NCBI GenBank assembly: GCA_000200715.1
Contig: DP000238.1
Location: forward strand, 742,154-806,153
Source: Cenarchaeum symbiosum A
Lineage (GTDB): Archaea > Thermoproteota > Nitrososphaeria > Nitrososphaerales > Nitrosopumilaceae
Direction: 5' to 3'
Length of the DNA stretch: 64,000 bases
Made by a program: the position numbers and the translations under genes. The notes beneath the pieces were generated by a model, which made no database searches, had not been told where the DNA came from, and saw only the letters and a program-made list of their open reading frames with translations. This document shows, in pieces, positions 7,283-20,346 of the stretch (position 1 is the first letter of the stretch; each line of letters begins with the position of its first letter).

Positions 7283-7291
7283 ATTAAAATA
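7283..7291 (+). promoter_or_regulatory. TATA box of A1
   Basis: ATTAAAATAG centred 26 nt before GTG at 7313. The TTAAAATA core is kept before all five A copies. Confidence 0.65.
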
Positions 7292-7312
7292 GCGGATCGG
7301 TGTAGTTTTTCT

Positions 7313-7705
7313 GTGAGGCCCATTCCCAAAACCGACGAGGAGAGGATCCGAATGATGCAGGAGATCGTGCACTCCGGCATAATAAAGATGTACCGGGTTC
7401 GATCCCGCTTTTGCGAAGAGGAATTTACGGACCACCTGAAGGGAATCATGAACGACTTGAAGGATTTACACACCATGGAGCAGGAGCTTAAAAAAATGCG
7501 GAAAATGTTCAATGCCATGGAATTTGAAAGACAGAAGAAATCACGCATTGTAGAGGAGGTGCCCAAAAATGTGCAGAAAGCATCTGATATCGTCTATAAT
7601 GAAGGGCAGAAGAATCCCCCTATGGCAGAGCGAACGTCCAGAAAAATGACAAAAATACCCGATGTCGTGGAGGGTAAAAAGCAGAGCGATCCAATGATCC
7701 AATAA
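7313..7705 (+). CDS. Family A helical protein, long form (A1)
   Basis: A 130-aa protein. The first ~75 residues match the other A copies: PIPKTDEERIRMMQEIV near the N-terminus, a basic middle and the charged heptad-like LHTMEQELKKMRKMFNAME, suggesting a helical bundle or short coiled coil. A1 alone carries a ~55-residue Lys/Glu-rich extension (from ERQKKSRIVEEV to SDPMIQ). The start is GTG where A2-A4 have ATG, fixed by the TATA box 26 nt upstream. It heads a probable A1-F1-B1 operon (F1 follows after 2 nt, and F1 overlaps B1 by ATGA). Function unknown; small charged helical proteins often mediate protein-protein contacts. Confidence 0.7.
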   Translation: MRPIPKTDEERIRMMQEIVHSGIIKMYRVRSRFCEEEFTDHLKGIMNDLKDLHTMEQELKKMRKMFNAMEFERQKKSRIVEEVPKNVQKASDIVYNEGQKNPPMAERTSRKMTKIPDVVEGKKQSDPMIQ

Positions 7706-7707
7706 TA

Positions 7708-7911
7708 TTGCAGGATTGGTATGTATCCGGACCGTGCCATGTCTATTCCACAACCGGATGTCGAGTCTTTGACGGAGTGGGGGGCTACAAGGATTATGGA
7801 TTCTTGAGCTACTGTGTTATCTGCGTATTATGCTATACGCCGGATTGTGGGCTTATCCATGTCGGTATGGGCATATTGACCGCATGCTGTAGTGGGGGGG
7901 ATGTGACATGA
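7708..7911 (+). CDS. Family F linker ORF (F1)
   Basis: An open frame of 67 codons from TTG at 7708 that ends in TGA overlapping the ATG of B1 (ATGA). The equivalent ORF F2 (10619-10813) ends in the same overlap with B2. The two translations align in this frame: G-x-x-H-[VI], GGY[KE]D, F-x-x-x-C-x-I, GLI and a C-terminal G-x-x-V. The DNA is diverged, so shared residues in this frame suggest that it is translated. The start is uncertain, since no ATG is available in frame. The protein has several Cys and hydrophobic residues. Function unknown; it may couple translation of A and B. Confidence 0.45.
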   Translation: MQDWYVSGPCHVYSTTGCRVFDGVGGYKDYGFLSYCVICVLCYTPDCGLIHVGMGILTACCSGGDVT

Positions 7912-8486
7912 CAGTTGAGCTTCTGGCAGGACTGGACGTGTCTAGTAAACAAGGAAAGGAGTACTTGGGAGGGATAGTGGGCTTGAAGGAGAGCATAACT
8001 TCTACTCACAAGAGACTCGGATACGAACAGATCCATATGAGAACATTGGGTGGAAAAACCAGGGAGATCATTCTTGGCAAGCTAATCTTCGATCTAGACT
8101 ACTTTCCCTTCTGTATAAGGACAGACAGGAATGCTATAATCGGTGAAAGTATGAAGTCAAGAAATGTCAGACATTCGGCAGTTAGAAGAATGGTGCTTGA
8201 GAAACACTTTGATCGGATTGTATATTCATACATCTGTGTGGAAATACTGCCATTTCTACAGAAATACAAGATGGATATGACTGACTTCAGCTTTGAATGC
8301 GATATTGATTGTAAGAATCTTGTAAGAAGAAGCGGTGGAAGGCAGATCGAACAGGGTATTGCGCATGACTTGGCAGACATAATTGCCTGGTCATTCACGC
8401 GCGGCAAGCGCTTAAAATCCCCAAAGTACAGTGACAAGTCGGACAAACTCCTCCGTGCAATGGCCGATTTTGTTAGAAAACAATAG
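7908..8486 (+). CDS. Family B protein, RNase-H-like Asp pattern (B1)
   Basis: A 192-aa protein, not recognised by name. It opens with MTVELLAGLD, where Asp10 ends a hydrophobic strand and is followed by Ser and a Gly-rich strand (EYLGGIVGL), as in RNase-H-fold proteins. ECDID (Asp132, Asp134) and a C-terminal HDLADIIAW (Asp154, Asp157) supply further acids kept in B2. This D...D...D layout suggests a nuclease-like RNase H fold, but that is inference from pattern only. The middle is basic (KSRNVRHSAVRRM). ATG at 7908 overlaps F1 by ATGA. The stop codon abuts structured element E1 directly. The gene is visibly richer in A/T than its chromosomal neighbours. Confidence 0.65.
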   Translation: MTVELLAGLDVSSKQGKEYLGGIVGLKESITSTHKRLGYEQIHMRTLGGKTREIILGKLIFDLDYFPFCIRTDRNAIIGESMKSRNVRHSAVRRMVLEKHFDRIVYSYICVEILPFLQKYKMDMTDFSFECDIDCKNLVRRSGGRQIEQGIAHDLADIIAWSFTRGKRLKSPKYSDKSDKLLRAMADFVRKQ

Positions 8487-8570
8487 TGGCCCCCGACCAC
8501 CATAACCCGGTGAAGACCACCGTGTTACGGGGTGTAGGCCACCGCCAGAACAGGGACAGTTCTCATTTAA
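8487..8570 (+). repeat. Structured element E1
   Basis: First of six copies of an ~85-nt element. The inner hairpin is TAACCCGGTG, loop AAGAC, CACCGTGTTA (9 of 10 pairs), closed by CCCCG upstream and CGGGG downstream with a 7-nt 5' bulge. The 3' end is CTCATTTAA. It begins at the base after the B1 stop, so it could act as an RNA 3' structure for the A-F-B transcript. Confidence 0.75.
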
Positions 8571-8821
8571 ATTCTTTTGTTTCCGCCGGCGGTGTAGTTT
8601 GTCCCCTGCTGCGCAAAGCAGTATTTCTGGCGCGGATCCCGCCGCGGTTGCTCTTCCCAGTACAGTTTCTACCGGCCGGCGTCCAGTGTCGACACACTGG
8701 GCATCTAGGCCAAGCGATCCCCTGGGATGTTTGGCGCACCGTAGCGTCCCAAAAGTGCGGGGAATGCAGATCCGGGGCATGACGTTAATAATTACTAGCG
8801 TGCCGCCTGTTTTGCGTTGAA
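8571..8821 (+). pseudogene. Decayed D-family segment (D1)
   Basis: It shows scattered similarity to D3 and D4, such as GCGCGGATCCCGCC against the GGTTCCGCC region and a 3' end GTTTTGCGTTGAATTAAAAT. No frame resembling the D proteins survives. It leads into the A2 TATA box as in the other units. Confidence 0.4.
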
Positions 8822-8830
8822 TTAAAATAT
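8822..8830 (+). promoter_or_regulatory. TATA box of A2
   Basis: TTAAAATAT centred about 25-26 nt before ATG at 8851. Confidence 0.65.
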
Positions 8831-8850
8831 CCGGCCGAGACGGTCTACCC

Positions 8851-9099
8851 ATGAGACCCATTCCCAAAACCGACGAGGAGAGGATCCGCATGATGCAGGA
8901 GATTGTACACTCTGGCATAATAAAGATGGACCGGATTCGATCTCGTTTGCTTAATGAGGTATTTGACGACCACCTGACGGGAGTCAGGTGGGAGTTGAAG
9001 GATTTGCACACCATGGATCGGGAGCTTAAAAAAATGCGAAAGACGCTCAATGCCATGGAGGCTGAAAGGCAGAAGGTTCAAGCGATCCCGCAGGACTGA
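8851..9099 (+). CDS. Family A helical protein (A2)
   Basis: An 82-aa copy of A, standard length, with PIPKTDEERIRMMQEIV and LHTMDRELKKMRKTLNAME. It is nearly identical to A1 over the first 25 residues and then differs (FDDHLTGVRWEL). Its TGA overlaps the ATG of a short F-like frame. No B gene follows; element E2 comes next after ~160 nt. Confidence 0.7.
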   Translation: MRPIPKTDEERIRMMQEIVHSGIIKMDRIRSRLLNEVFDDHLTGVRWELKDLHTMDRELKKMRKTLNAMEAERQKVQAIPQD

Positions 9100-9239
9100 T
9101 GAATCCGGGCCGTGGTTATTTTACAAGCAGTGCCTCCGGGGGACAACACGGACTGACAGGTTTTCGAAGAGGTATCATCTACATATCGCACAGTGTATCA
9201 GGCCGCAGATCATGCCGGCAGCATCGATGCGCCGCCTAG
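9099..9239 (+). pseudogene. F-like remnant after A2
   Basis: A 46-codon frame (MNPGRGYFTSSASGGQHG...) whose ATG overlaps the A2 stop. It shares G-R, G-G, F and I-I/SGR spacing with F2, but the matching stretch after A4 is stopped at codon 22 and that after A5 is frameshifted. It is probably a degenerating F with no B partner. Confidence 0.35.
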
Positions 9240-9261
9240 ATGTTATGATGATGGGAAAAGA

Positions 9262-9348
9262 GTGGCCCCCGACCACCATAACCCGGTGAAGGCCACCGTG
9301 TTACGGGGCGTAGGCCGCTGCCATACCTGGGCAATCCTCACTCAATAA
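9262..9348 (+). repeat. Structured element E2
   Basis: Copy two of E. The hairpin TAACCCGGTG / CACCGTGTTA with loop AAGGC and the outer CCCCG/CGGGG stem are kept. The distal part drifts (GCTGCCATACCTGGGCAAT), and this form is shared with E4, the other copy that precedes a C pair. Confidence 0.75.
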
Positions 9349-9364
9349 GGGTGGTAGCAAATAA

Positions 9365-9376
9365 GGTTAAATAAGC
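9365..9376 (+). promoter_or_regulatory. TATA box of the C1 pair
   Basis: GGTTAAATAAGC centred 27 nt before ATG at 9397. The same box and spacing precede C2. Confidence 0.7.
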
Positions 9377-9396
9377 TATTAGCTGTTACACTATTC

Positions 9397-9516
9397 ATGA
9401 TGATACACTGTAACGCCTATGGGGGATGCATGGATTGCATCGCCGTTTACGACACATGGCCCGTAAAAAACTCCCTCATCTGTAAGGGATGTAGAAATGC
9501 GCATGGTGCTGATTGA
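9397..9516 (+). CDS. C1a, 39-aa Cys-rich protein
   Basis: A very small product with five Cys: CNAYGGCMDC and, after YDTWPVKNSLI, CKGC. This is a plausible single zinc-binding knuckle. It starts at ATG 27 nt from a TATA box. The copy at 12474 keeps all five Cys and the whole YDTWPVKNSLIC segment despite third-base changes, so it is probably translated. Its end overlaps C1b by 20 nt in another frame. Function unknown. Confidence 0.6.
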   Translation: MMIHCNAYGGCMDCIAVYDTWPVKNSLICKGCRNAHGAD

Positions 9517-9676
9517 CATGGGATTGGCCGACTATACATGCGATTTATGTGGCAAGCACCCGCCCAAAACACCGCCAAAGGATGGCGGGTTGCGGGGCAT
9601 CGGTGACAACAAATGCGCGTGCAAGCCATGTATAGAGAAGCATTACCCGGATATGCTGCCTAGCTGGATGAAATAA
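9497..9676 (+). CDS. C1b, 59-aa Cys-rich zinc-ribbon-like protein
   Basis: It contains YTCDLCGKHPPK, then after a 17-residue loop KCACKPC, giving two C-x2-C-like knuckles, and ends LPSWMK. ATG at 9497 lies inside C1a, so it would be translated by reinitiation or coupling; a frameshift joining C1a and C1b is the alternative. C2b has the same frame, length and Cys set. The divergent relative at 3038 supports this frame as coding. Confidence 0.6.
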   Translation: MRMVLIDMGLADYTCDLCGKHPPKTPPKDGGLRGIGDNKCACKPCIEKHYPDMLPSWMK

Positions 9677-10121
9677 AAGGCATTCTCGCAAAAGGCACGG
9701 ATTGCCAACTCTGTCACGTTGAGGGGTCATGGCCCCTAATCTGCCAACCCGCTAGATCGATGTTCTCCTACTCTGCGTCTCCCGACATTATGGGAACATG
9801 TTGAATATCGCCATACCTGCTGCCGTCTTTAGTGGGTACTTCCGTCTACACTGCCTTTTCAATCCCCAGAGGGTCCCCTCAGCCGAGTCAGTGGTCGGAC
9901 CTGCACACTAGAACAGGAAGATGAACCGGTTAGGCCCTGCGTCTCCCAGCGTCTTGACAGATTTGTGGCGCGCCTGCTTGCAGACTTCAACCGGGCCCAT
10001 GTTCCCGAGCCCCTGTGCCGGGAGATGAATCTGTCCCTTGTACCCCACTTCGTCTCGAGTCTTCTAACATATACAGTACAACTCGCAGCATGTCTGCCAC
10101 GGTGAAGCGTCCAGTGCGGCA
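9677..10121 (+). other. Array spacer, no gene seen
   Basis: The first ~110 nt match the stretch after C2 (AGGCATTC, GATTGCC, GTCATGGCCCC). The rest is unlike anything else in the window and is closed in all frames at useful length, apart from minus-strand frames without promoters. Confidence 0.4.
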
Positions 10122-10343
10122 TTGGTCTCCGCAAGTATGTGGGCTCGGCGGAATGGTGAAAGCTGGCATGCAGGCATCCAGTTCGCTGGGCTCAAATGCA
10201 GGATATGCCCGTCTGTATTACCCGGGTACTGGAGCGCAGCGGTGCAGGATATGCCGCCATATCCAGAAGCATGGGGAAAAACCGATGAGCATTGTATTGA
10301 CATTTGCAGGGCAAGCATCCACCCTGTTTTCACGTTGGGTTAA
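10122..10343 (+). CDS. D2, divergent D-family ORF
   Basis: A 73-codon frame whose 3' half aligns with D3: KCRICP against CKICVP, AWGKTDEHCIDICRA against IWGKTGPGHCVDNCK, then VFTLG against VFTLS at the stop. The shared stop lies at the start of the A3 TATA box. The start is uncertain and no promoter was found. It may be a truncated or decaying copy. Confidence 0.35.
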   Translation: MVSASMWARRNGESWHAGIQFAGLKCRICPSVLPGYWSAAVQDMPPYPEAWGKTDEHCIDICRASIHPVFTLG

Positions 10344-10348
10344 AATAT
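10340..10348 (+). promoter_or_regulatory. TATA box of A3
   Basis: TTAAAATAT centred 25-26 nt before ATG at 10369; it overlaps the stop of D2. Confidence 0.65.
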
Positions 10349-10368
10349 TGGGCCTGGGTGGTCTACCC

Positions 10369-10617
10369 ATGAAACCCATTCCCAAAAGCGATGAGGAGAG
10401 GATCCGCGTGATGCAGGAGATTGTGCGCACAGGTATAAAGAAGATGCACAGGGTCAGGTATCGCTTTTATGATGAGGAGTTTATTGACCTGCTGGAGGGG
10501 ATCATGTGGGATCTGAAGGACCTGGACACCATGGAACAGGAGCTCAAAAAAATGCGAAAGATGCTCAATGCCATGGAGGCCGAAAGGCGGAAGGTTCCGG
10601 CGATCTCTATGGACTGA
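10369..10617 (+). CDS. Family A helical protein (A3)
   Basis: An 82-aa copy: PIPKSDEERIRVMQEIV, then KKMHRVRYRFYDEEFIDLLE and LDTMEQELKKMRKMLNAME. It heads the second A-F-B set; F2 starts one base after its stop. Confidence 0.7.
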   Translation: MKPIPKSDEERIRVMQEIVRTGIKKMHRVRYRFYDEEFIDLLEGIMWDLKDLDTMEQELKKMRKMLNAMEAERRKVPAISMD

Positions 10618-10618
10618 T

Positions 10619-10813
10619 ATGAATTTAGGCCGTTCCCATATTGTTTCACATGCTGGTATAAATTCCACGTACGTGCTAGGCGGATATGAGGATCAGAGAT
10701 TCTCTGGATGCTGCATCATCCGTATGTTAAACAGCATGTCAGGCCGTGGACTGATTTCCTACAGGCATCGGGTTCTGCCCCGGCTGTGCCGCAATAGAGG
10801 GCATGCGGTATGA
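10619..10813 (+). CDS. Family F linker ORF (F2)
   Basis: A 64-aa frame from ATG at 10619 that ends with an ATGA overlap onto B2, as F1 does onto B1. It has GGYEDQRFSGCCII in the part matching F1 and a basic C-terminus (SYRHRVLPRLCRNRG). Unlike F1 it has an ATG start. Position, spacing and in-frame similarity support translation. Function unknown. Confidence 0.5.
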   Translation: MNLGRSHIVSHAGINSTYVLGGYEDQRFSGCCIIRMLNSMSGRGLISYRHRVLPRLCRNRGHAV

Positions 10814-11400
10814 CAACCAAACTTCTGGCAGGAATGGACTTGTCTGGTGCCTGTTCAGAAAATGGGGAGTATTTAGCGGGAATAGTAGGCCTGAAAGAGA
10901 ACATAATCTCTACACACCGAAGACTCGGACATGATGGAATCCACATGAGATCGATGTATAATAAGTCCAGGGAGAAAATTTTTGCTAGGTTGAACTTTAA
11001 TCTAAAATACTGTGTTCCATTCTGTCTGAAGATAGACAGGTGCATCATAGTTGATGAAATTATGAAATCAAGGTCCATCAGGCGGGCAAGAGTCAAAAGA
11101 GAGGTGATCGAGCGCCTGTTTGATCAGAATGTATTTGTTTTTCTACGAGGGGAGATATCGGTGTTTCTGCAGAGGCAGAAGAAGAACATGGCAGATTTTG
11201 ACTTTGAATGTGATGCCGATAGCAGGGATTTCGTAAGGGGAAAGGGCGGAGGCTACGCCGAACCAGGCATTGCGCATGAACTAGCGGACATAATTGCCTG
11301 GTTCTACGCGCACAACAAGCCCTTGAAACGAGTGAATTACAATGACCGGTCGGCGGATCTCAGAAAGGCAATGGAGAAACCTGTTCGGAAAATACGGTGA
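10810..11400 (+). CDS. Family B protein, RNase-H-like Asp pattern (B2)
   Basis: A 196-aa homologue of B1 with clear divergence. Kept features are Asp10 in LLAGMDLS, the strand EYLAGIVGLKENI, STHRRLG, MKSR, FECDADS (two Asp), GIAHELADIIAW and KPLKRVNYNDRSADL. The retained acidic residues over a background of substitutions argue for selection on an active or metal-binding site. The stop lies inside the first bases of E3. Nothing in the sequence shows a target. Confidence 0.65.
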   Translation: MTTKLLAGMDLSGACSENGEYLAGIVGLKENIISTHRRLGHDGIHMRSMYNKSREKIFARLNFNLKYCVPFCLKIDRCIIVDEIMKSRSIRRARVKREVIERLFDQNVFVFLRGEISVFLQRQKKNMADFDFECDADSRDFVRGKGGGYAEPGIAHELADIIAWFYAHNKPLKRVNYNDRSADLRKAMEKPVRKIR

Positions 11401-11484
11401 CCCCCGGCCACCATAACCCGATGAAAGACATCACATTACGGGGCGTAGGCCACCGTTTGAACAGGGACACTTCTCATTTAATAA
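11397..11484 (+). repeat. Structured element E3
   Basis: Copy three of E, starting at the B2 stop. The inner hairpin is weaker (TAACCCGATG / CATCACATTA); the outer CCCCG/CGGGG is kept. The 3' end CATTTAATAAC resembles a TATA box and lies about 33 nt before the D3 GTG. Confidence 0.7.
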
Positions 11485-11512
11485 CTTTCCTTTCAGCCGA
11501 CGGCTTGAGGGC

Positions 11513-11890
11513 GTGCCAGCGGTTGACCAAAGTCGGATCCCGGGGACAGGTTCCACCTGGGCTGCTTTTTTTCGCGTATGTAATTTACACGTGGCGGCAT
11601 ACACGACCTACCTTGCATGTGGATCCAGAGGCTGGTCACCGGTTAGCCGCCCTGTATACGGTGGAGCATCCTCTACGTGCCCCAAGTACGAGTGCACTTT
11701 ACGGCCGGCAACATGCCCGTACAAGTCTTCTGGGTGCGGCTGCAAGATATGTGTGCCGAAGTTAAAGTCGGCCGGGGCTGCGGGGGTGCCATGTGCACTG
11801 CTGTACTCAAAGATATGGGGAAAAACCGGTCCAGGGCACTGCGTTGATAATTGCAAGACAGACGTCCTGTCTGTTTTCACATTGAGTTAA
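11513..11890 (+). CDS. D3, Cys-rich ORF
   Basis: A 125-codon frame from GTG. Its middle has YECTLRPATCPYKSSGCGCK followed by I-C, which shares the Y-x-C...C-x-C-K-x-C pattern of the C-family ribbons. The C-terminus has IWGKTGPGHCVDNCK. D4 keeps nearly all of these Cys. Another long frame overlaps the first half, and the nucleotide changes between D3 and D4 do not clearly favour one frame, so coding is possible rather than shown. The stop overlaps the A4 TATA box. Confidence 0.4.
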   Translation: MPAVDQSRIPGTGSTWAAFFRVCNLHVAAYTTYLACGSRGWSPVSRPVYGGASSTCPKYECTLRPATCPYKSSGCGCKICVPKLKSAGAAGVPCALLYSKIWGKTGPGHCVDNCKTDVLSVFTLS

Positions 11891-11895
11891 AATAT
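11887..11895 (+). promoter_or_regulatory. TATA box of A4
   Basis: TTAAAATAT centred about 26 nt before ATG at 11916; it excludes the longer upstream frame from 11895. Confidence 0.65.
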
Positions 11896-11915
11896 TGGAC
11901 CTAGATGGTCTACCT

Positions 11916-12143
11916 ATGAGGCCCATTCCCAAAAGCGACGAGGAGAGGATCCTCGTAATGCAGGAGATTGTGCGCTCTGGCATAAAAAAGATGTACCGGG
12001 TCAGATCCCGCTTTTGTGAAGAGGACTTTACGGACCACCTGAAGGGAATCATGAACGACTTGAAGGATTTACACACCATGGAACAAGAGCTCAAAAAAAT
12101 ACGAAAGATGCTCAATGCCATGGAGGCCGAAAGGTTCCGGTGA
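11916..12143 (+). CDS. Family A helical protein (A4)
   Basis: A 75-aa copy, slightly shorter at the C-terminus (ends EAERFR). It is almost identical to A1 in the middle (VRSRFCEEDFTDHLKGIMND) and to A3 near the N-terminus, which suggests gene conversion among copies. Confidence 0.7.
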   Translation: MRPIPKSDEERILVMQEIVRSGIKKMYRVRSRFCEEDFTDHLKGIMNDLKDLHTMEQELKKIRKMLNAMEAERFR

Positions 12144-12321
12144 TCCTGCAGGACTGACATGTATCCGGGACATGGTTATTCCACAAGCAGTGCCTCCGGG
12201 GGACAACACGGACTGACAGGTTTTTGAGCAGGCATCATATACATATTGCACCGTACGTCAGGCCGCAGGTTATACCGGCAGTATCGATGCGCCGCCTAGA
12301 TGTTATGGTAATGGGAAAAGA
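12144..12321 (+). other. F-like remnant spacer after A4
   Basis: It matches the spacer after A2 over most of its length, but the F-like frame stops at codon 22 (...GLTGF, stop). No B gene follows. Confidence 0.45.
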
Positions 12322-12408
12322 GTGACCCCCGGCCACCATAACCCGATGACAGACATCGTGTTACGGGGCGTAGGCCACTGCCATATCTGGGCAATTCTCA
12401 CTTAATAA
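12322..12408 (+). repeat. Structured element E4
   Basis: Copy four of E. The hairpin TAACCCGATG, loop ACAGA, CATCGTGTTA has 9 of 10 pairs. Compared with E1/E2 one pair is changed on both sides (CGGTG/CACCG to CGATG/CATCG). Confidence 0.75.
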
Positions 12409-12441
12409 CACTTGTTTCTGCCGATAGGGTAGGAGCAAACA

Positions 12442-12453
12442 AGGTTAAATAAG
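12442..12453 (+). promoter_or_regulatory. TATA box of the C2 pair
   Basis: AGGTTAAATAAG centred 27 nt before ATG at 12474, as for C1. Confidence 0.7.
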
Positions 12454-12473
12454 CTATTATCTGTTCGTTATTC

Positions 12474-12593
12474 ATGTTGACAAACTGTAACGGCTATGGG
12501 GGATGCACGGATTGCATCGCCGTTTACGACACATGGCCCGTGAAAAACTCCCTCATCTGTAAGGAATGCAGAAATGCATTTGGTGTTGATTGA
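12474..12593 (+). CDS. C2a, 39-aa Cys-rich protein
   Basis: Counterpart of C1a with five Cys kept: CNGYGGCTDC and CKEC flanking the unchanged YDTWPVKNSLI. Same length, start spacing and 20-nt overlap with the next frame. Confidence 0.6.
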   Translation: MLTNCNGYGGCTDCIAVYDTWPVKNSLICKECRNAFGVD

Positions 12594-12753
12594 CATGGGG
12601 ACTGCCGACTATACATGCGATTTATGCGGCAAGCACCCGCCCAAAACACCGTCAAAGGATAGTTGGTTGCGGGGCATCGGTGACAACAAGTGCGCATGCA
12701 AGCCATGTATACTGAAGCACTGCCCAGAGAGGCTGCCTAGTTGGATGAAATAA
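12574..12753 (+). CDS. C2b, 59-aa Cys-rich zinc-ribbon-like protein
   Basis: Counterpart of C1b. It has YTCDLCGKHPPK and NKCACKPC unchanged, an extra Cys near the end (KHCPERLPSWMK), and changes elsewhere (for example DSWLRG for DGGLRG). Overlapping ATG start inside C2a. Confidence 0.6.
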   Translation: MHLVLIDMGTADYTCDLCGKHPPKTPSKDSWLRGIGDNKCACKPCILKHCPERLPSWMK

Positions 12754-13059
12754 AAGGCATTCCCACAAAATACATGGATTGCCGACTCTGTAAAGTTGAG
12801 TAGTCATGGCCCCCAATCTGCTAACCCCGCGGGAGATGAATGCCTTCTGATGCCTGACCGTGTTTAAAGAAATTTGCCATGTCCCCGCCGCTTGGCAGGA
12901 ATGTGGTCGCATTCCCATAAATTAACAGAGTCGTTTCCGCCGGATGGGGGAATCTGCTTTATGATTGCCGATGCATTGCCTGGGACCGGTTTTTTCCTTT
13001 ACCCCGTCCCGGACATAAGGGGGCGCGGAGTATCTCAACATCCACAAGTCGGGCATCGA
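12754..13059 (+). other. Array spacer, no gene seen
   Basis: The left part matches the spacer after C1. The remainder leads into the decayed B3 copy without a promoter or conserved frame. Confidence 0.4.
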
Positions 13060-13309
13060 TATGTTCGGCGCATTTGCCCGCGTTTGTGGAGATATCCATG
13101 CTTGGAATGCAGGGGGATATGGCGGGCTTGAATGTGATGCCGATGGCAAGGATTTTGCTGGAAGAGGAGGGAGACGCGCCAAACCGGGTATGCACAAACT
13201 AGCAAGCACAATCACCCGGCCACACACGCAAGATTTTGAAACATGTGAATTACAGTGACAGGACGGCCGAACTATGCCGCACAATGGGCAATCTTGACTG
13301 AAAAATACG
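13060..13309 (+). pseudogene. Truncated, frameshifted B copy (B3')
   Basis: Only the C-terminal half of B is recognisable: LECDADGKDFAGRGGRRAKP matches FECDADSRDFVRGKGGGYAE in B2, then GMHKLAST matches GIAHELAD. A frameshift follows, and in the next frame KHVNYSDRTAEL matches KRVNYNDRSADL. The N-terminal Asp10 strand is gone. It ends at E5 exactly as B1 and B2 end at E1 and E3. Confidence 0.7.
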
Positions 13310-13396
13310 GCGACCCCCGGCCACCATAACCCGATGAAAGACATCGCATTACGGGGCGTAGGCCACCGTTTGAACAGGGGCAATTTTCATTTGATA
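13310..13396 (+). repeat. Structured element E5
   Basis: Copy five of E. CGATG/CATCG is kept; the upper pairs are weaker (CATCGCATTA). Outer CCCCG/CGGGG intact. Confidence 0.7.
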
Positions 13397-13425
13397 GCTT
13401 TCCTTTCCACCGACGGCTTGAGGGC

Positions 13426-13815
13426 GTGCCAACGGTTGAGCAAAATCGGATCCCCTGCACGGGTTCCGCCTGGGATGCTTTTCTTCGCGCATGTAATTCC
13501 CACATGGTATCATCCTGCGTGGCATGCCCGACCTACCTTGCATGTGGATCCAGAGGCAGGCCTCCGGTTCTCCGCCCTGTATACAGCGGAGCATCCCCTA
13601 TATTCCCCAAGTACGAGTGCACTATGCGGCCGGCAACATGCCCGTGCAAGCCCTCCGGGTGCGGCTGCAAGAGATGCGTGCAGGAGTTCAGGACGGACGG
13701 GGCTGCGGGGGCGCCGGGTGCTCTGCAGTGCCCGAAGATATGGAGAAAAACCGGTCCAGGGCACTGCGTTGATGATTCCAAGGCGGGCGCCCTGTCTGCT
13801 TTCACGTTGAATTAA
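13426..13815 (+). CDS. D4, Cys-rich ORF
   Basis: A 129-codon frame aligned with D3 throughout: YLACGSRG, YECTMRPATCPCKPSGCGCK then R-C, and WRKTGPGHCVDDSK. It gains one Cys and loses two others relative to D3. The GTG start is at the same place. Coding status is uncertain for the reasons given for D3. Confidence 0.4.
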   Translation: MPTVEQNRIPCTGSAWDAFLRACNSHMVSSCVACPTYLACGSRGRPPVLRPVYSGASPIFPKYECTMRPATCPCKPSGCGCKRCVQEFRTDGAAGAPGALQCPKIWRKTGPGHCVDDSKAGALSAFTLN

Positions 13816-13838
13816 AATATCCGAGCGGGATCGTCTCC

Positions 13839-14089
13839 ATGCGAGGCCCATTCCCAAAAGCGACGAGGGGCGGATCCGTGTAATGCAGGATATTGTGTAC
13901 TCTGGCATAAAAAAAATGCACAGGGTTCGGTACCGTCTCTATGAGGATGAATTTACGGACCATTTGAAAGGGCTCATGTGGGACCTGAAGGACCTGGACA
14001 CCATGGAACAAGAGCTCAAAAAAATGCGAAAGATGCTCAATGCCATGGAGGCCGAAAGGCGAAAGCTTCCAGCCATGCCACGGGGTTGA
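13839..14089 (+). pseudogene. Family A copy with disrupted start (A5)
   Basis: The TATA box (13812-13820) and body of A are present, but two extra bases (CG) lie between the expected ATG at 13839 and the AGG-CCC-ATT codons. Translation from that ATG ends after 14 codons. The A frame resumes with ATG at 13883, which would give a 68-aa protein lacking the conserved PIPKSDEGRIR opening. The body is otherwise intact (LDTMEQELKKMRKMLNAME), so the lesion is recent or the internal start is used. Confidence 0.65.
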
Positions 14090-14255
14090 GATGAATCAGG
14101 CCGTGGTTATTCCACAGTCGAGGTCTCCGACCGGCGGGCGGCAATGATAACAGGTTTTTGAACCGACATCATCTGCGTATTGTGCAGCACATCAGGCCGC
14201 GGGTCATACTGGCCACATCCGTACATCATCTAGACGGCATGGTAATAGAAAAGGG
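14090..14255 (+). other. F-like remnant spacer after A5
   Basis: It matches the spacers after A2 and A4 (GGCCGTGGTTATTCCACA) with insertions that break the F frame. Confidence 0.4.
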
Positions 14256-14343
14256 GCGACCCCCGGCCACCATAACCCGATGACAGACATCGTGCTACGG
14301 GGCGTAGGCCACCGTTTGAACAGGGACAATTCTCATTTAATAA
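14256..14343 (+). repeat. Structured element E6
   Basis: Last copy of E and right edge of the array. TAACCCGATG / CATCGTGCTA with loop ACAGA; outer stem intact; ends TCTCATTTAATAA. Confidence 0.75.
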
Positions 14344-14843: not shown

Positions 14844-15841
14844 CCGCCGGCAGGGCCGGACCGGCCAAGACGAAAACAGTCTGCCTGTCCCACAAGGAGG
14901 ATACCGACGGAATAAGCTCGGCGGCACTCATCAGGCAGGCGTTTGGCGGCAGCTCGGTCCTGGTGGATTATCCGGGGCAGATGGATGCGCTCGAAAGGAT
15001 AGCAGCAGACCCTGAGCTCAAGTCCCTGTACATATGCGACCTCGGCCTTAGCAAGAAAAACCAGGACGGGTTTGTCTCCACGCTGGGGGCGCTCCGAAAG
15101 AGGAGGGTCGCCGTCACGTACATAGACCACCACGACTTGGAGCCAAAGATACGCAGAAAGCTCGCATCGTTAAAGGTCAAGCTCATACACGACGTAAACG
15201 AGTGCACGACAGTCCAGGTGTATGAAAAGTTCAAGTCAAAGCTTGACGAGCACGCGCCGTTTATAGCGGCATGCGCCGCAGTCACAGACTACATGGAGGA
15301 CCGGCCGGCAGGCTCTAGGCTGCTTGCCATATACGACAGGCAGTTTGTCCTGGTGAGCGCCACTGTGCTTACATACAATATAGTGGGGCATCAAAAGGAC
15401 CCGGAATTCCTGCAGGGGCTGGTCGAGGACCTGGCCGCGTCAAAGTATCCCCACGAGCTGGACGGCTCGTTCCAGTTCGCCCAGACCCAGACGGCAAAGC
15501 TGGCCGACGTGATGGCCAAGGTGAGAACAGGCATGAAGACCATGAAGAACCTCGGATACATGGAGATAGTGGATTCTGGCGCCAGCGGGGCGGTCAACTT
15601 TGTGCTGGGCTTTTCCGGCAAGGACGTGGGCGTGGCGTACAAGGAGCGGGTCGACCACGGGATATACGCGGTATCCGTGCGGGGTTCAAAGTCGTGCAAG
15701 GCGCACTTGGGCAAGATCACAAACGAGCTTGCCACCTCGCTTGGCGGCTTTGGCGGGGGCCACGGCAAGGCGTGCGGCGCGGCAATTCCAAAGCCCAAGA
15801 TCAGGGCCTTTCTAAGGGAGCTCAACAAGAGGCTCGGCTGA
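14840..15841 (+). CDS. DHH-family phosphoesterase with DHHA1-type C-terminus
   Basis: A 333-aa Mn-dependent phosphodiesterase of the RecJ/nanoRNase superfamily. Motif I is SHKEDTDGISS with metal ligands Asp21 and Asp23; YICDLG (~63-68) gives motif II; YIDHHD (~93-98) is the name-giving DHH; TDYMED (~150) supplies a further Asp. The C-terminal domain ends with GGFGGGHGKACGAAIP (~301-316), the substrate-binding GGGH motif. Likely substrates are short oligonucleotides or single-stranded nucleic acid; the sequence does not decide between a RecJ-like exonuclease and a nanoRNase. Cytoplasmic. It is expressed from the 14646 promoter. Confidence 0.9.
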   Translation: MTAGRAGPAKTKTVCLSHKEDTDGISSAALIRQAFGGSSVLVDYPGQMDALERIAADPELKSLYICDLGLSKKNQDGFVSTLGALRKRRVAVTYIDHHDLEPKIRRKLASLKVKLIHDVNECTTVQVYEKFKSKLDEHAPFIAACAAVTDYMEDRPAGSRLLAIYDRQFVLVSATVLTYNIVGHQKDPEFLQGLVEDLAASKYPHELDGSFQFAQTQTAKLADVMAKVRTGMKTMKNLGYMEIVDSGASGAVNFVLGFSGKDVGVAYKERVDHGIYAVSVRGSKSCKAHLGKITNELATSLGGFGGGHGKACGAAIPKPKIRAFLRELNKRLG

Positions 15842-15899
15842 GCGTGTACCGGCAGAACAGGGGGGGATCCTGCAAGCTGGGCCTGCCCGCAAACATGTG

Positions 15900-15912
15900 T
15901 AAATGTTTAAAC
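15900..15912 (+). promoter_or_regulatory. Promoter block of the 1,469-aa propeller gene
   Basis: AAATGTTTAAACT with the TTTAAAC core centred 28 nt before TTG at 15937. The block from the box through the first codons (TTCACG, GTTGAA, CGATCATCCC) is shared with the giant gene at 22078-22130. Confidence 0.7.
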
Positions 15913-15936
15913 TCTAACCAAATTCACGGGACATCG

Positions 15937-18900
15937 TTGAATGCGATCATCCCGGGCATGCGATCCGGCATGGGCGGGGCGGCAGTATTTCTTGCGGCCG
16001 CGCTCGTACTTTGTACGTACGGCGGTGCTGCATACGGGCATCCCGGCCATGCGGACATGCAGGTACTGTTTACTGGCGGCGCCATTCCAGTCACTCTGGC
16101 AACGCTATACATGAACGAGGGAGGGGAGCCCATGGGGGACGGCCCCAGCGCGGCCGAGACGGTCCGGCTGGAAGTCCGCCGGGGAACCGTCCTGACAGAG
16201 CCCGCGGAACCCCCGGGTGTCCCGCAGCAGGCCATACCCGTGGAGCCCCTCGGTATACTGCGGTCGGCCATACTGGTCGAGGGTGATACCGGGACCCTGA
16301 CTATCACATTTGAAGGCGCACTAGACGCCTCCTCGGTGGATACGACAAAGTTCCACATAAGGGACGGCTATGCGGCCTCGGGCGGGGCCACGCTGCCAGC
16401 CAACTACACTGTAGGCGCCGACAACAGGACCGTCATCGTCGAGATGGACAGCGCAATACTGCAGATAATCCGCGGGTATACTAGTCCGCGGATACACTTT
16501 GAGACAGGGGCCTTGGTGGGTGCGGACGGCTTGTCCTTCCCCCAGGCGTTTGAGCTGCCGCGGCCACGGCACGTAGAATCATTTCCTCTATTTGGAATAG
16601 AGAACGACCCCGAGGGTATTACATTTGCGCCCGACGGGAGCAGGATGTTTACATCCGGCGGCTCGGGCAACTTGCGCCAGTTCGAGCTGGATCCGCCGTT
16701 CTCAATAGATGCGATACCGGGTTCTGCAAGGTCGGCCACCAAGCTGCCTCCTGCCACGGGGCCCAACGGGACTACAACCGGCCTGTACGCGACAGAAAAT
16801 GACCTCGCAGGTATTACATTTGACCCCCGCGGCACCCGGTTCTACATTGCAGGCGATGACACAGATACAGTCCGGCAGTACTCGCTGGATATACCGTACG
16901 ACATACGGGGAAACATTACATTTGACGGCCTGTTTAACGTAAGCGGCGAGGTGCCCGTCCCCGAGGCGATAGAGTTTGGCCCCGGCGGGATAAACATGTA
17001 CGTGGCGGCAGCGGGGAGTGACGCGTCGATATACCGGTACGTGCTAGCCGAGGCGTTCAACGTATCCACTGCATCGTATACCGGTGATTCACTGAATGTT
17101 CTATCCAACGAGACGAGGCCTACAGGTGTCAGAATCTCCCCCGACGGCTACAGGCTGTTTATAGTCGGCGAGATGCCCCAGAGCGGGCCCGATTCTGTAT
17201 TCGAGTACGGCCTGACACGGGCCTTTGACATAACGTCTGCAGTGTACGAAGGCAGGTTCCCTAGCGTGGCCGAGGCCACCATGAGGGATCTTGCGTTTGC
17301 AGACGACGGCACGCAGATGTACATTATGGGCCACCTGACGCGCTCGATACACCGCTATGACCTAAACGCACCGTACGAGATTGTCCCGCCCATATCCGCC
17401 GTGCTCGACGTGAGTGCCAACCAGACCTCCCCCGAGGGGTCTGCATTTTCAGGGGACGGGCGGCACATATTTGTCATCGGCAAGGCAGGGCCAACCGGGG
17501 ATATCCTCAGGTACCCGCTGTCTTCCCCGTTTGACCTTGGCACCGCAGGCGCCCCCGACCAACTCTTCCAGACTACCCCCAACGAGCTCAAACCTCACGA
17601 CATGGAGTTTTCCAATGACGGGCTCCGCATGTTCGTTATAGGGGACAGTGACAATATAGTACAGTTCAACCTAAGTGCGGCATTTGATATAGGGCCCGGC
17701 AGCCCGCCGGTCTTTGCTGGCAGCAATGCCACCACATTCAGCGGCGATACAATAGACATATCCGCCCAGGACCAAACGGGTCTAGACTTTTCCCCCAACG
17801 GGACATACATGTATGTGACGGCAAACAACGGGCTTATCCAGTATGTACTTGATACGCCATACGACGCGTCGTCTGTATCCTCCTCGTTGTTCTTTGATAC
17901 GAGGCTGAGGCCCCTCGCCGACGGGGAATATGCGGAGGATGAGCCAGGGGACGTGGCCTTCTCGGCAGACGGGACCAGGATGTTCGTAACTGGCGACCGC
18001 GTAAACGTGGTGCACACCTATGTACTCCCGACGCCGTTTGACCTGTCGACGGCCACGCATCTTATACACGACGGCCTCTTCAACGTGGTGGACTTTGGCG
18101 ATAATATCCGCGGCCTCGAGTTCTCCCCAGACGGGCTGCGCATGGTGGTGACATTTGAGAACCCCGATGCCCTGGTCGAGTACGCCACTGCCACGTATCC
18201 CGTGGTCGTAATGCACGACGTGGCTGCGGCCGACAGCCCCGCCACCGCCGACTTTGCGCCCGTGGACTTTACGGGCGTGCAGGACCAGTCGGACAATCTT
18301 GGTGCGGTTGACTATGTGCTGTTGAGTCACCGGTCCCCCGAGGTGCTGCCCATACCTGACGCCCCCGAGCTGCTCTTGAGCACGCTTGACGGGGAGGCCG
18401 CCGTGCTGGAGCTTGTATTTGACCAGCCTGTCAACGGGACGCTTGAAAACATCCACATAGACAGCGCCACTACCAATGATACCGTCAGCCTCGGGAATGC
18501 GATCCGGGAAGATGCCGGGAACTCTAGCGTCATAAGGCTTGTGCTCGACTCGGACGACCTGGACCCAATCCGCAGTTTCAACAGCTTTACACTGCGCTTT
18601 GATCCCGGCGCAGTGACCGGGGCCGACAACTCGACCTTCCCGCCGGAATTTGCACTGCCCAACTCCACTGAAGAGTTTGACACGTCCGTATCTGTGATTG
18701 AATCCCCCACCGGCCTGGCGTTCTCGGCTGACGGCACGATGATGTTCATCTCGGGCGGCGCTGACGGTGTTATACAAGGGTACTCTATGGATGCGCCGTA
18801 TGACATCTCGGGCGCCTCGCAGAGTACAAACTATTCGCTGGCAGGGGTCCAGGATGATCCCAGAGATGTGGGCTTTTCTGAAGATGGCACGAGGCTGTTT

Positions 18901-20346
18901 GTTCTTGGCAAGGACCCCCCCGCCGTGCAGCAGTACGATCTTGGTGCCTCCTTTAACGTAAGCCGGACACTGCGCAGCGCAACATACGACCTGTCTGCCT
19001 ATGCGGCCGCGCCCGATGTATCTACCTTTGATGCCGCGCCCGAAGGACTGGCCTTTGGGGACGGGGGCCGGCGGATGTACGTTGTAGACCAGTCCGCGCC
19101 GGCCAGCGTACGCCAGTACACACTTGGCTCCGGGTATGATGTGTCGCAGGTCTCGTACGCGGGATCGTTCAGGATAGTGGGCGCCGGAGGGCCCATGGGG
19201 GATGAGCTGCCGACGGGCGTGGCGTTCGCGCCAGACGGGCGATTCATGTTCGTATCAGAAAACCGGAACAGTTCCATCCTTGTCTATTTCCTCGAATCCC
19301 CGTTTGATGTACAGTCGGCGGCGTATAATGAATCCCTGAATGTCACGGGCCTAGACGAGTCCCCTGCGGGCCTTGCATTCTCGTCTGACGGCTTTGATAT
19401 GTTCGTTCTAGGCGGGAACGGGGCCGTCTACCAGAACGATCAAGACATGACACCTGTGGCCCTGCTGGCCATGTTCCCGGATGCCTCCGGGCCTAGCCCT
19501 GGCGCCGGCGGCCAAGCTCCAACATCCAGCCCCGCCCCGCTTCCACGCGGCGGCGGAGGAGGCGGCGGTGGCGGCGGAGGGGCCAGGGTCACGCCGACAG
19601 GAAACTCGCTGGGATACGACGCCTCCTTTGACTTTGCCTCGGGAGGGAGCGGCGTGCTGAGCGGCAGCTCCATACAGCTTGATCCGGGCATGCCCCTGTC
19701 GATATCTCCCATGATCAGCCCCGCAGGGGTGCTGAGCCCCTTTGACATGGAGGTCAGCATCTCCGGCTCAGACGGGACGGCCGCAGAGGTATACTATAAC
19801 AGGATAGGGTCCTTCTTTGCAAGGGACTGCGGGACCGATGCGGAGATCTCTGGAATGGTATACACGTGCGACCCGTCATCGATAATATCCGGCGGTGCGT
19901 CGGCATCCGTATCCGGAGGCGTGCTCGAGACTATCACCATACCGCTGCAAGGCGAGTTCTCCGGCACGCTGAGCATAATGCTGCGCGATTCACAGGGGCT
20001 GGCGCTTGCAACGCACAACAGGGACTCTTACAGCATAAGGATGGGCGATGCGGGGCCGGCGCCTTTCGTGCCGGAGACTGAACCCGAGCGGCAGTCAGAG
20101 CCCGCGGCATCGCCGGCGGAGCTTGAGCGGCAGGCGGAGCCCATAGAGCGGACAGAGCCCGAGATGGAGGAGCCCGTGATTCAGGAGCCCGCAAGGCCAA
20201 GCCCGCCGGAGCCGCAGGCCGAGCGCCAGGAGTCGGAGCAGCCGCAGCCCGGGCGGCAGGAGCCCGCAGGAGCGCAGGATGCAGCAGAACCGGAGGGATT
20301 TGTCGACATGATACTCGGGTTCTTTAGGTCCATCTTTGGCGAATAA
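15937..20346 (+). CDS. Secreted multi-propeller surface protein (1,469 aa)
   Basis: Start TTG at 15937, fixed by the TATA spacing shared with the giant gene. Residues 1-34 form a signal peptide (hydrophobic AAVFLAAALVLC, then AAYG). Then come an Ig-like domain (~105-205, GDTGTLTITFEG, FHIRDG), a beta-propeller (~213-754), a second Ig-like domain (~754-908) and a second propeller (~908-1170). Blades are ~45-50 aa with the motif P-x-G-[VL]-x-FSxDGxxMFVxG and Y-x-L-x-x-P[FY]D. The C-terminus has a poly-Gly hinge (~1203), a two-Cys domain (~1219-1372, Cys pair around DCGTDAEISGMVYTC), a Glu/Pro-rich tail and a final amphipathic helix GFVDMILGFFRSIFGE. Many N-x-S/T sites suggest glycosylation. Probably anchored or displayed at the cell surface. 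The N-terminal ~750 residues are closely similar to the giant protein. Confidence 0.85.
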   Translation: MNAIIPGMRSGMGGAAVFLAAALVLCTYGGAAYGHPGHADMQVLFTGGAIPVTLATLYMNEGGEPMGDGPSAAETVRLEVRRGTVLTEPAEPPGVPQQAIPVEPLGILRSAILVEGDTGTLTITFEGALDASSVDTTKFHIRDGYAASGGATLPANYTVGADNRTVIVEMDSAILQIIRGYTSPRIHFETGALVGADGLSFPQAFELPRPRHVESFPLFGIENDPEGITFAPDGSRMFTSGGSGNLRQFELDPPFSIDAIPGSARSATKLPPATGPNGTTTGLYATENDLAGITFDPRGTRFYIAGDDTDTVRQYSLDIPYDIRGNITFDGLFNVSGEVPVPEAIEFGPGGINMYVAAAGSDASIYRYVLAEAFNVSTASYTGDSLNVLSNETRPTGVRISPDGYRLFIVGEMPQSGPDSVFEYGLTRAFDITSAVYEGRFPSVAEATMRDLAFADDGTQMYIMGHLTRSIHRYDLNAPYEIVPPISAVLDVSANQTSPEGSAFSGDGRHIFVIGKAGPTGDILRYPLSSPFDLGTAGAPDQLFQTTPNELKPHDMEFSNDGLRMFVIGDSDNIVQFNLSAAFDIGPGSPPVFAGSNATTFSGDTIDISAQDQTGLDFSPNGTYMYVTANNGLIQYVLDTPYDASSVSSSLFFDTRLRPLADGEYAEDEPGDVAFSADGTRMFVTGDRVNVVHTYVLPTPFDLSTATHLIHDGLFNVVDFGDNIRGLEFSPDGLRMVVTFENPDALVEYATATYPVVVMHDVAAADSPATADFAPVDFTGVQDQSDNLGAVDYVLLSHRSPEVLPIPDAPELLLSTLDGEAAVLELVFDQPVNGTLENIHIDSATTNDTVSLGNAIREDAGNSSVIRLVLDSDDLDPIRSFNSFTLRFDPGAVTGADNSTFPPEFALPNSTEEFDTSVSVIESPTGLAFSADGTMMFISGGADGVIQGYSMDAPYDISGASQSTNYSLAGVQDDPRDVGFSEDGTRLFVLGKDPPAVQQYDLGASFNVSRTLRSATYDLSAYAAAPDVSTFDAAPEGLAFGDGGRRMYVVDQSAPASVRQYTLGSGYDVSQVSYAGSFRIVGAGGPMGDELPTGVAFAPDGRFMFVSENRNSSILVYFLESPFDVQSAAYNESLNVTGLDESPAGLAFSSDGFDMFVLGGNGAVYQNDQDMTPVALLAMFPDASGPSPGAGGQAPTSSPAPLPRGGGGGGGGGGGARVTPTGNSLGYDASFDFASGGSGVLSGSSIQLDPGMPLSISPMISPAGVLSPFDMEVSISGSDGTAAEVYYNRIGSFFARDCGTDAEISGMVYTCDPSSIISGGASASVSGGVLETITIPLQGEFSGTLSIMLRDSQGLALATHNRDSYSIRMGDAGPAPFVPETEPERQSEPAASPAELERQAEPIERTEPEMEEPVIQEPARPSPPEPQAERQESEQPQPGRQEPAGAQDAAEPEGFVDMILGFFRSIFGE

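What the first reader, a model, noticed from the sequence alone, without database searches (positions are those of the whole stretch)
7283..14343. Undescribed tandem cassette array of small genes with a fixed order
Five A genes, linker F ORFs, B genes, Cys-rich C and D ORFs and six E elements recur in the order A-F-B-E-D-A-E-C. Spacing is ~1.5 kb per A and ~3 kb per super-unit. Each A has its own TTAAAATA box and each C pair its own GGTTAAATAAG box. B looks richer in A/T than the flanks. There is no transposase or integrase. Intact and decaying copies side by side suggest birth-and-death of a multigene family, possibly a defence, toxin-like or host-interaction locus.
Basis: partly seen in the sequence, partly recalled or inferred. 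Interest (0 to 1): 0.85.

Follow-up and report, generated by a model that had tools for sequence, protein, structure and literature searches.

The report
Archaeal nuclease and small-RNA cassette array
The repeated "cassettes" are copies of a small two-part system, a nuclease-like gene facing its own tiny RNA gene, amplified together with an organism-specific helper protein; the same protein-RNA pairing is scattered across related archaea and looks like a new branch of a known but functionally unexplained family (DUF3800 and its RNAs).

Summary
The array is real: five A genes, two intact B genes plus a truncated third, six E elements and two C units repeat over 7.3-14.3 kb, and A, B and E recur at three other places in the genome. 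D is not coding. E is a small RNA gene on the minus strand, converging on B: a long hairpin with compensatory changes, a TATA-like box about 25 nt before its start and a U-run after it. B is a ~195-aa protein with a predicted RNase H fold; its best viral structural match is a DUF3800 protein. B homologues occur sporadically in other thaumarchaea; most (17 of 19 loci read) carry a structured RNA near the stop codon, and a model of those RNAs finds orphan copies in B-carrying genomes but none significant in B-less ones. Genuine archaeal DUF3800 genes carry Rfam DUF3800-X sRNA in the same convergent position. Best reading: a divergent thaumarchaeal DUF3800-like nuclease/sRNA pair, amplified here with a genome-restricted 75-aa partner (A). 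Its action is inferred (RNA restrains or directs the nuclease; defence- or addiction-like), not shown. New variant of a known kind.

The parts
7313..7705 (+). A1, small helical protein (73-aa conserved core, longer C-terminus here)
   Evidence: TATA-like TTAAAATA at 7284
7908..8486 (+). B1, intact 192-aa DUF3800-like protein with predicted RNase H fold
8486..8542 (-). E1, small RNA gene converging on B1 (begins at the G of the B1 stop codon)
8851..9099 (+). A2, intact
9262..9318 (-). E2, small RNA gene; local B lost
9397..9516 (+). C1 ORF1, 39-aa Cys-rich protein
9497..9676 (+). C1 ORF2, 59-aa Cys-rich (CxxC pairs) protein
   Evidence: dN/dS 0.27 against C2 ORF2; only two copies in the genome
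10369..10617 (+). A3, intact
10810..11400 (+). B2, intact 196-aa DUF3800-like protein; the sequence modelled by AlphaFold2
11397..11453 (-). E3, small RNA gene converging on B2 (overlaps the B2 stop codon)
11500..11880 (.).
   Evidence: dN/dS 0.7-1.2 in all three frames
11916..12143 (+). A4, intact
12322..12378 (-). E4, small RNA gene; local B lost
12474..12593 (+). C2 ORF1, 39-aa Cys-rich protein
12574..12753 (+). C2 ORF2, 59-aa Cys-rich protein
13061..13290 (+). B3, truncated remnant of B
   Evidence: BLASTN homology to the B2 end
13310..13366 (-). E5, small RNA gene
13410..13805 (.). Second D spacer, non-coding
13883..14089 (+). A5, start codon lost, rest of frame open
14256..14312 (-). E6, small RNA gene; local B lost

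Best explanation
Each full unit is a DUF3800-like nuclease/small-RNA pair. B is an RNase H-fold protein with three invariant Asp. Immediately past its stop codon, on the opposite strand, lies an independent small RNA gene (E): a TATA-like box about 25 nt before the start, a ~57-nt hairpin transcript, then a U-run. In this genome the pair was joined by a genome-restricted ~75-aa protein (A) and amplified, after which many B copies decayed while A and E were kept. Shown by computation: conserved RNA structure, its strand, its promoter/terminator geometry, its linkage to B across genomes, and selection on A and B. Inferred: transcription, that RNA and B form a ribonucleoprotein, and that the RNA (and A) hold the nuclease in check until triggered, as in an addiction or defence module. 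I put ~0.7 on the identity and ~0.4 on that mode of action.
For: B: no Pfam, PHROG, PADLOC or NCBIfam match. Homologues in 11 of 300 genomes of the order, with D10, D132 and D157 invariant. The AlphaFold2 model (mean pLDDT 76, 3 sequences only) matches RNase H2 first in the PDB (E 0.017, prob 0.98) and a DUF3800 phage protein first in BFVD (E 0.0011, prob 0.97). RNA: across 16 non-window elements the covariation score is 0.433 against 0.162+-0.023 in shuffles, 0/500, and slid partners give at most 0.14; 32 distinct matches give 0.454 against 0.169+-0.014. Orphan copies not used to build the model score E about 1e-13 to 1e-4; 28 hits at E<1e-4 lie in 6 B-carrying genomes, and none at E<0.05 in 13 genomes without B. 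Strand: 61 A.C against 13 G.T cells on the + strand (p 1.4e-8), so the minus strand is the one that pairs; minus strand more stable in 34 of 37 (p 1e-6). Gene signals: a 6-nt A/T run at offset 20-34 in 30/38 elements against a mean of 4 at other offsets; AAA just beyond P1 in 28/38 against 21% background. Window-type E: 227 of 230 pairs standard on the minus strand, six pairs covarying. Precedent: genuine archaeal DUF3800 genes L109 and L094 have Rfam DUF3800-X sRNA right after the stop on the opposite strand; DUF3800 is reported to have an RNase H fold and associated ncRNAs (PMC10910872). Selection: A dN/dS 0.07-0.54 between intact copies, B1/B2 0.38. B and RNA distances correlate, rho 0.35, reached by 168 of 10000 permutations.
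Against: Pfam DUF3800 does not hit any B, and hhalign of the two alignments gives only 32% probability over the N-terminal strand. The B model rests on three sequences; a second model, led by the Nitrosopumilus protein, was poor (pLDDT 58). The covariance model built from the other elements does not find the window's own E copies, so E is tied to them by position, orientation, signals and architecture rather than by sequence. No expression, binding or cleavage data. In one genome (L057) the RNA lies 2.2 kb from B and in the other orientation.
Confidence: 0.7

Rival explanations
1. E is the RNA component of an RNA-directed B effector: the RNA is an activating or targeting cofactor, not an inhibitor, and orphan RNAs work in trans with B.
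For: RNase H-fold proteins often act with RNA; orphan RNA copies keep promoter-like boxes; RNA found only in B-carrying genomes; DUF3800 proteins also accompany some CRISPR effectors (PMC10910872; PMC12669027).
Against: No variable single-stranded guide segment: the whole element is a closed hairpin with conserved loops. B is only ~195 aa with no further domain.
Confidence: 0.2
2. E is a DNA recombination or mobility site (attC-like or transposon end) and B acts on it; the array grew by site-specific recombination.
For: Hairpin beside the stop codon of small genes; B and its RNA lie between sspC and sspD in two genomes while sspC and sspD are directly adjacent in others; dispersed and tandem copies.
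Against: The A.C/G.U asymmetry means selection on one transcribed strand; fixed TATA-like box and U-run; no defined element ends or target duplications were established.
Confidence: 0.12
3. E is only a shared bidirectional terminator or 3' UTR hairpin between convergent transcripts.
For: Palindromic, next to the stop codon, A-run on one side.
Against: Compensatory changes and conserved unpaired motifs (ACATSAG, RTTC); TATA-like box at a fixed distance; orphan copies away from B; G.U bias to one strand.
Confidence: 0.08
4. The array is a decaying, functionless relic of a lineage-specific duplication.
For: Several B copies truncated or frame-broken; A and B not found in the same-genus genome G246.
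Against: Strong purifying selection on A between dispersed copies and on B1/B2; all ten E copies keep their pairing.
Confidence: 0.08

Closest known systems
DUF3800 proteins (Pfam PF12686) with DUF3800-X sRNA (Rfam RF02984)
   Same: RNase H-fold protein; structured small RNA immediately past the stop codon on the opposite strand in L109 and L094, like B and E.
   Different: B is below detection by the PF12686 profile; the RNAs do not match any Rfam DUF3800 family; the A partner is known only here.
TnpB/IscB-type nucleases with a non-coding RNA (from memory)
   Same: RNase H-fold nuclease adjacent to a structured RNA gene.
   Different: B is about half the size with no extra domains; the RNA is a closed hairpin without an evident guide and is convergent, not sense.
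RNA-antitoxin systems (type III, ToxIN-like; from memory)
   Same: Predicted nuclease paired with a small structured RNA; RNA retained where the protein is lost.
   Different: Fold differs; the RNA lies downstream and antisense, not as upstream sense repeats.
Integron attC cassette arrays (from memory)
   Same: Tandem small-gene units each ending in a hairpin.
   Different: No integrase noticed; units are paralogues; selection acts on a transcribed strand.
SspABCD phosphorothioation system
   Same: B is inserted between SspC and SspD in two Nitrosopumilus-group genomes.
   Different: In G206 an SspA and an SspB-like gene are also present, so B is an addition, not SspB; no SspC match in the window's genome.

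Membership tests
DUF3800 (PF12686) | Match to the Pfam profile | tested here: not met
   No match at E<=1 for B1, B2 or ten homologues
DUF3800 (PF12686) | Profile-profile similarity | tested here: inconclusive
   hhalign A3 against archaeal DUF3800 A7: 32% probability, N-terminal strand only
DUF3800 (PF12686) | RNase H-like fold | tested here: met
   AF2 model matches RNase H2 and a DUF3800 phage protein best; modest scores
DUF3800-associated RNA (Rfam DUF3800 families) | Match to an Rfam covariance model | tested here: not met
   No DUF3800 RNA family hit in the window array or the B loci at E<=5; positive control: hits in true DUF3800 loci
DUF3800-associated RNA (Rfam DUF3800 families) | Structured RNA adjacent to the protein gene | tested here: met
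   Covarying hairpin beside B in the window and in relatives
SspB of the Ssp phosphorothioation system | Gene position between SspA and SspC | tested here: not met
   In G206 an SspB-like gene sits between SspA and SspC; B lies after SspC
Integron cassette array | Integrase in the genome | not tested
   Not searched genome-wide; none noticed near the array
Toxin-antitoxin system | Toxicity of B neutralised by a partner | not testable with these tools
   Needs expression experiments

The most novel reading that the evidence does not exclude
B with its convergent hairpin RNA is a minimal (~195 aa) RNA-dependent RNase H-fold nuclease of archaeal defence, with A as a lineage-specific adaptor, and DUF3800/RNA pairs in general work this way.
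Probability: 0.15. Interest if true: 0.9.

Novelty: new variant of a known kind. Interest (0 to 1): 0.62.

Why it matters
DUF3800 proteins and their RNAs have been catalogued for years without a function. This adds a compact, unrecognised archaeal branch with a clear RNA gene (promoter-like box, strand, terminator), a set of orphan RNAs for comparison, a partner protein in one genome, and an insertion in a phosphorothioation defence operon. It gives specific small pieces to test.

Tried and rejected
Sequence-family searches for A, B and C: only weak chance hits. PRORP/NYN nuclease for B: one weak Pfam hit (E 0.007) not seen in homologues. Rfam on the array: nothing. E as a plus-strand RNA: rejected by the A.C/G.U count and by folding. 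B as a replacement of SspB: rejected, an SspB-like gene is present in G206. D as genes: rejected by dN/dS. Homologues of B in viral contigs, phages and plasmids: none found; genome contigs gave only L057. The first Mantel runs failed or were void through a file-name clash; one search is the valid one. The covariance model of the other elements does not recover the window's E.

Full report
What is there. The window is bases 742154-806153 of a 2,045,086-base single-contig genome. Outside the window the same units occur at 817.5, 976.4 and 1308.2 kb, so this is a dispersed family with one tandem cluster.

Which parts are genes. Pairwise dN/dS between intact A copies, including dispersed ones, is 0.07-0.54; B1/B2 0.38; C ORF2 0.27 (simple Nei-Gojobori counts, and the rows of A5 and L030 in that call are out of frame and not used). 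A is found only in this genome: all strong hits among 250 genomes of the family are its own eight copies, the rest are weak. C has only the two array copies. B copies decay often: the one at 1308.6 kb carries in-frame stops, those at 818 and 976 kb are remnants and the third in the array is truncated, while A and E mostly persist.

What B is. Sequence libraries give nothing. Homologues occur in 11 of 300 genomes of the order and 11 of 250 of the family; three Asp are invariant. The AlphaFold2 model, from only three sequences, has mean pLDDT 76. Its best PDB matches are RNase H2 chains and its best viral match is a DUF3800 protein; E-values are modest. A second model was poor. The Pfam DUF3800 profile misses B and hhalign is weak, so I call B DUF3800-like, not a DUF3800 member.

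What E is. Reading past the stop codon of B homologues elsewhere showed a recurring hairpin with motifs ACATSAG and RTTC; by eye 17 of 19 loci have one, some as clear variants. An alignment of 16 shows strong covariation against shuffles and slid controls. A covariance model of these found further copies, many not next to B, in six of eleven B-carrying genomes, and none at E<0.05 in thirteen genomes without B. Around the 38 elements examined there is an A/T box about 25 nt beyond one end and an A-run at the other. The mismatches on the B strand are mostly A.C, which are G.U on the other strand (61 against 13), and the other strand folds better in 34 of 37. Together this reads as a small RNA gene facing B. 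In this genome all ten E-type copies (six in the array, four elsewhere) keep 227 of 230 pairs on that strand.

Link to the known. True DUF3800 genes of this phylum were collected. Two of them, L109 and L094, carry Rfam DUF3800-X sRNA directly past the stop on the opposite strand, with A/T-rich sequence beyond it; two others have DUF3800-VI RNA in other positions. Earlier work reports an RNase H fold and ncRNA association for DUF3800 (PMC10910872), and Rfam lists DUF3800 RNA families (PMC11701678). The window's E is not found by the covariance model of the other elements, so the claim that they are the same kind rests on position, orientation, signals and architecture.

Context. In G206 the order is SspA, SspB-like, SspC, B with its RNA, truncated SspD; in the Nitrosopumilus MAG L057 B follows SspC by 10 nt and its RNA lies before SspD. 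This suggests that B/RNA units move into defence operons. In the window's genome a second cluster at 216.7-219.5 kb has another small protein X (dN/dS 0.28) with three RNA copies and a broken B, a parallel to A.

Mechanism. The retention of A and E where B is lost, the presence of the RNA only where B exists, and the modest correlation of B and RNA distances fit a nuclease with a cognate RNA partner. Whether the RNA restrains, is processed by, or directs B is not decided here; I favour restraint in a defence- or addiction-like module at about 0.4.

Noticed in passing
460-2544 (-): Large AAA_15/AAA_21 ATPase with a weak OLD-like TOPRIM match; possible OLD-family nuclease.
   Followed up: no
15694-20346 (+): 1550-aa predicted surface-type repeat protein with recurring 'FS.DG..M' repeats.
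   Followed up: no
L026 5770-8445 (genome 216.7-219.5 kb): Second cluster: small protein X duplicated, broken B, three small RNA copies.
   Followed up: partly
genome 470217-470274 and 470498-470555 (-); L114, L126: Two tandem orphan copies of the small RNA, intergenic.
   Followed up: partly
genome 1564961-1565605 (-), L097: A genuine Pfam DUF3800 gene in the window's own genome.
   Followed up: no
L048 300-490 and 1951-2142: Two 97% identical 192-nt copies with internal inverted ends flanking an SspC fragment and B; MITE-like.
   Followed up: no
L136, 615-1294 nt past the element: A frame-broken ORF with a DUF3800-like GIQLAD motif near an orphan RNA.
   Followed up: no
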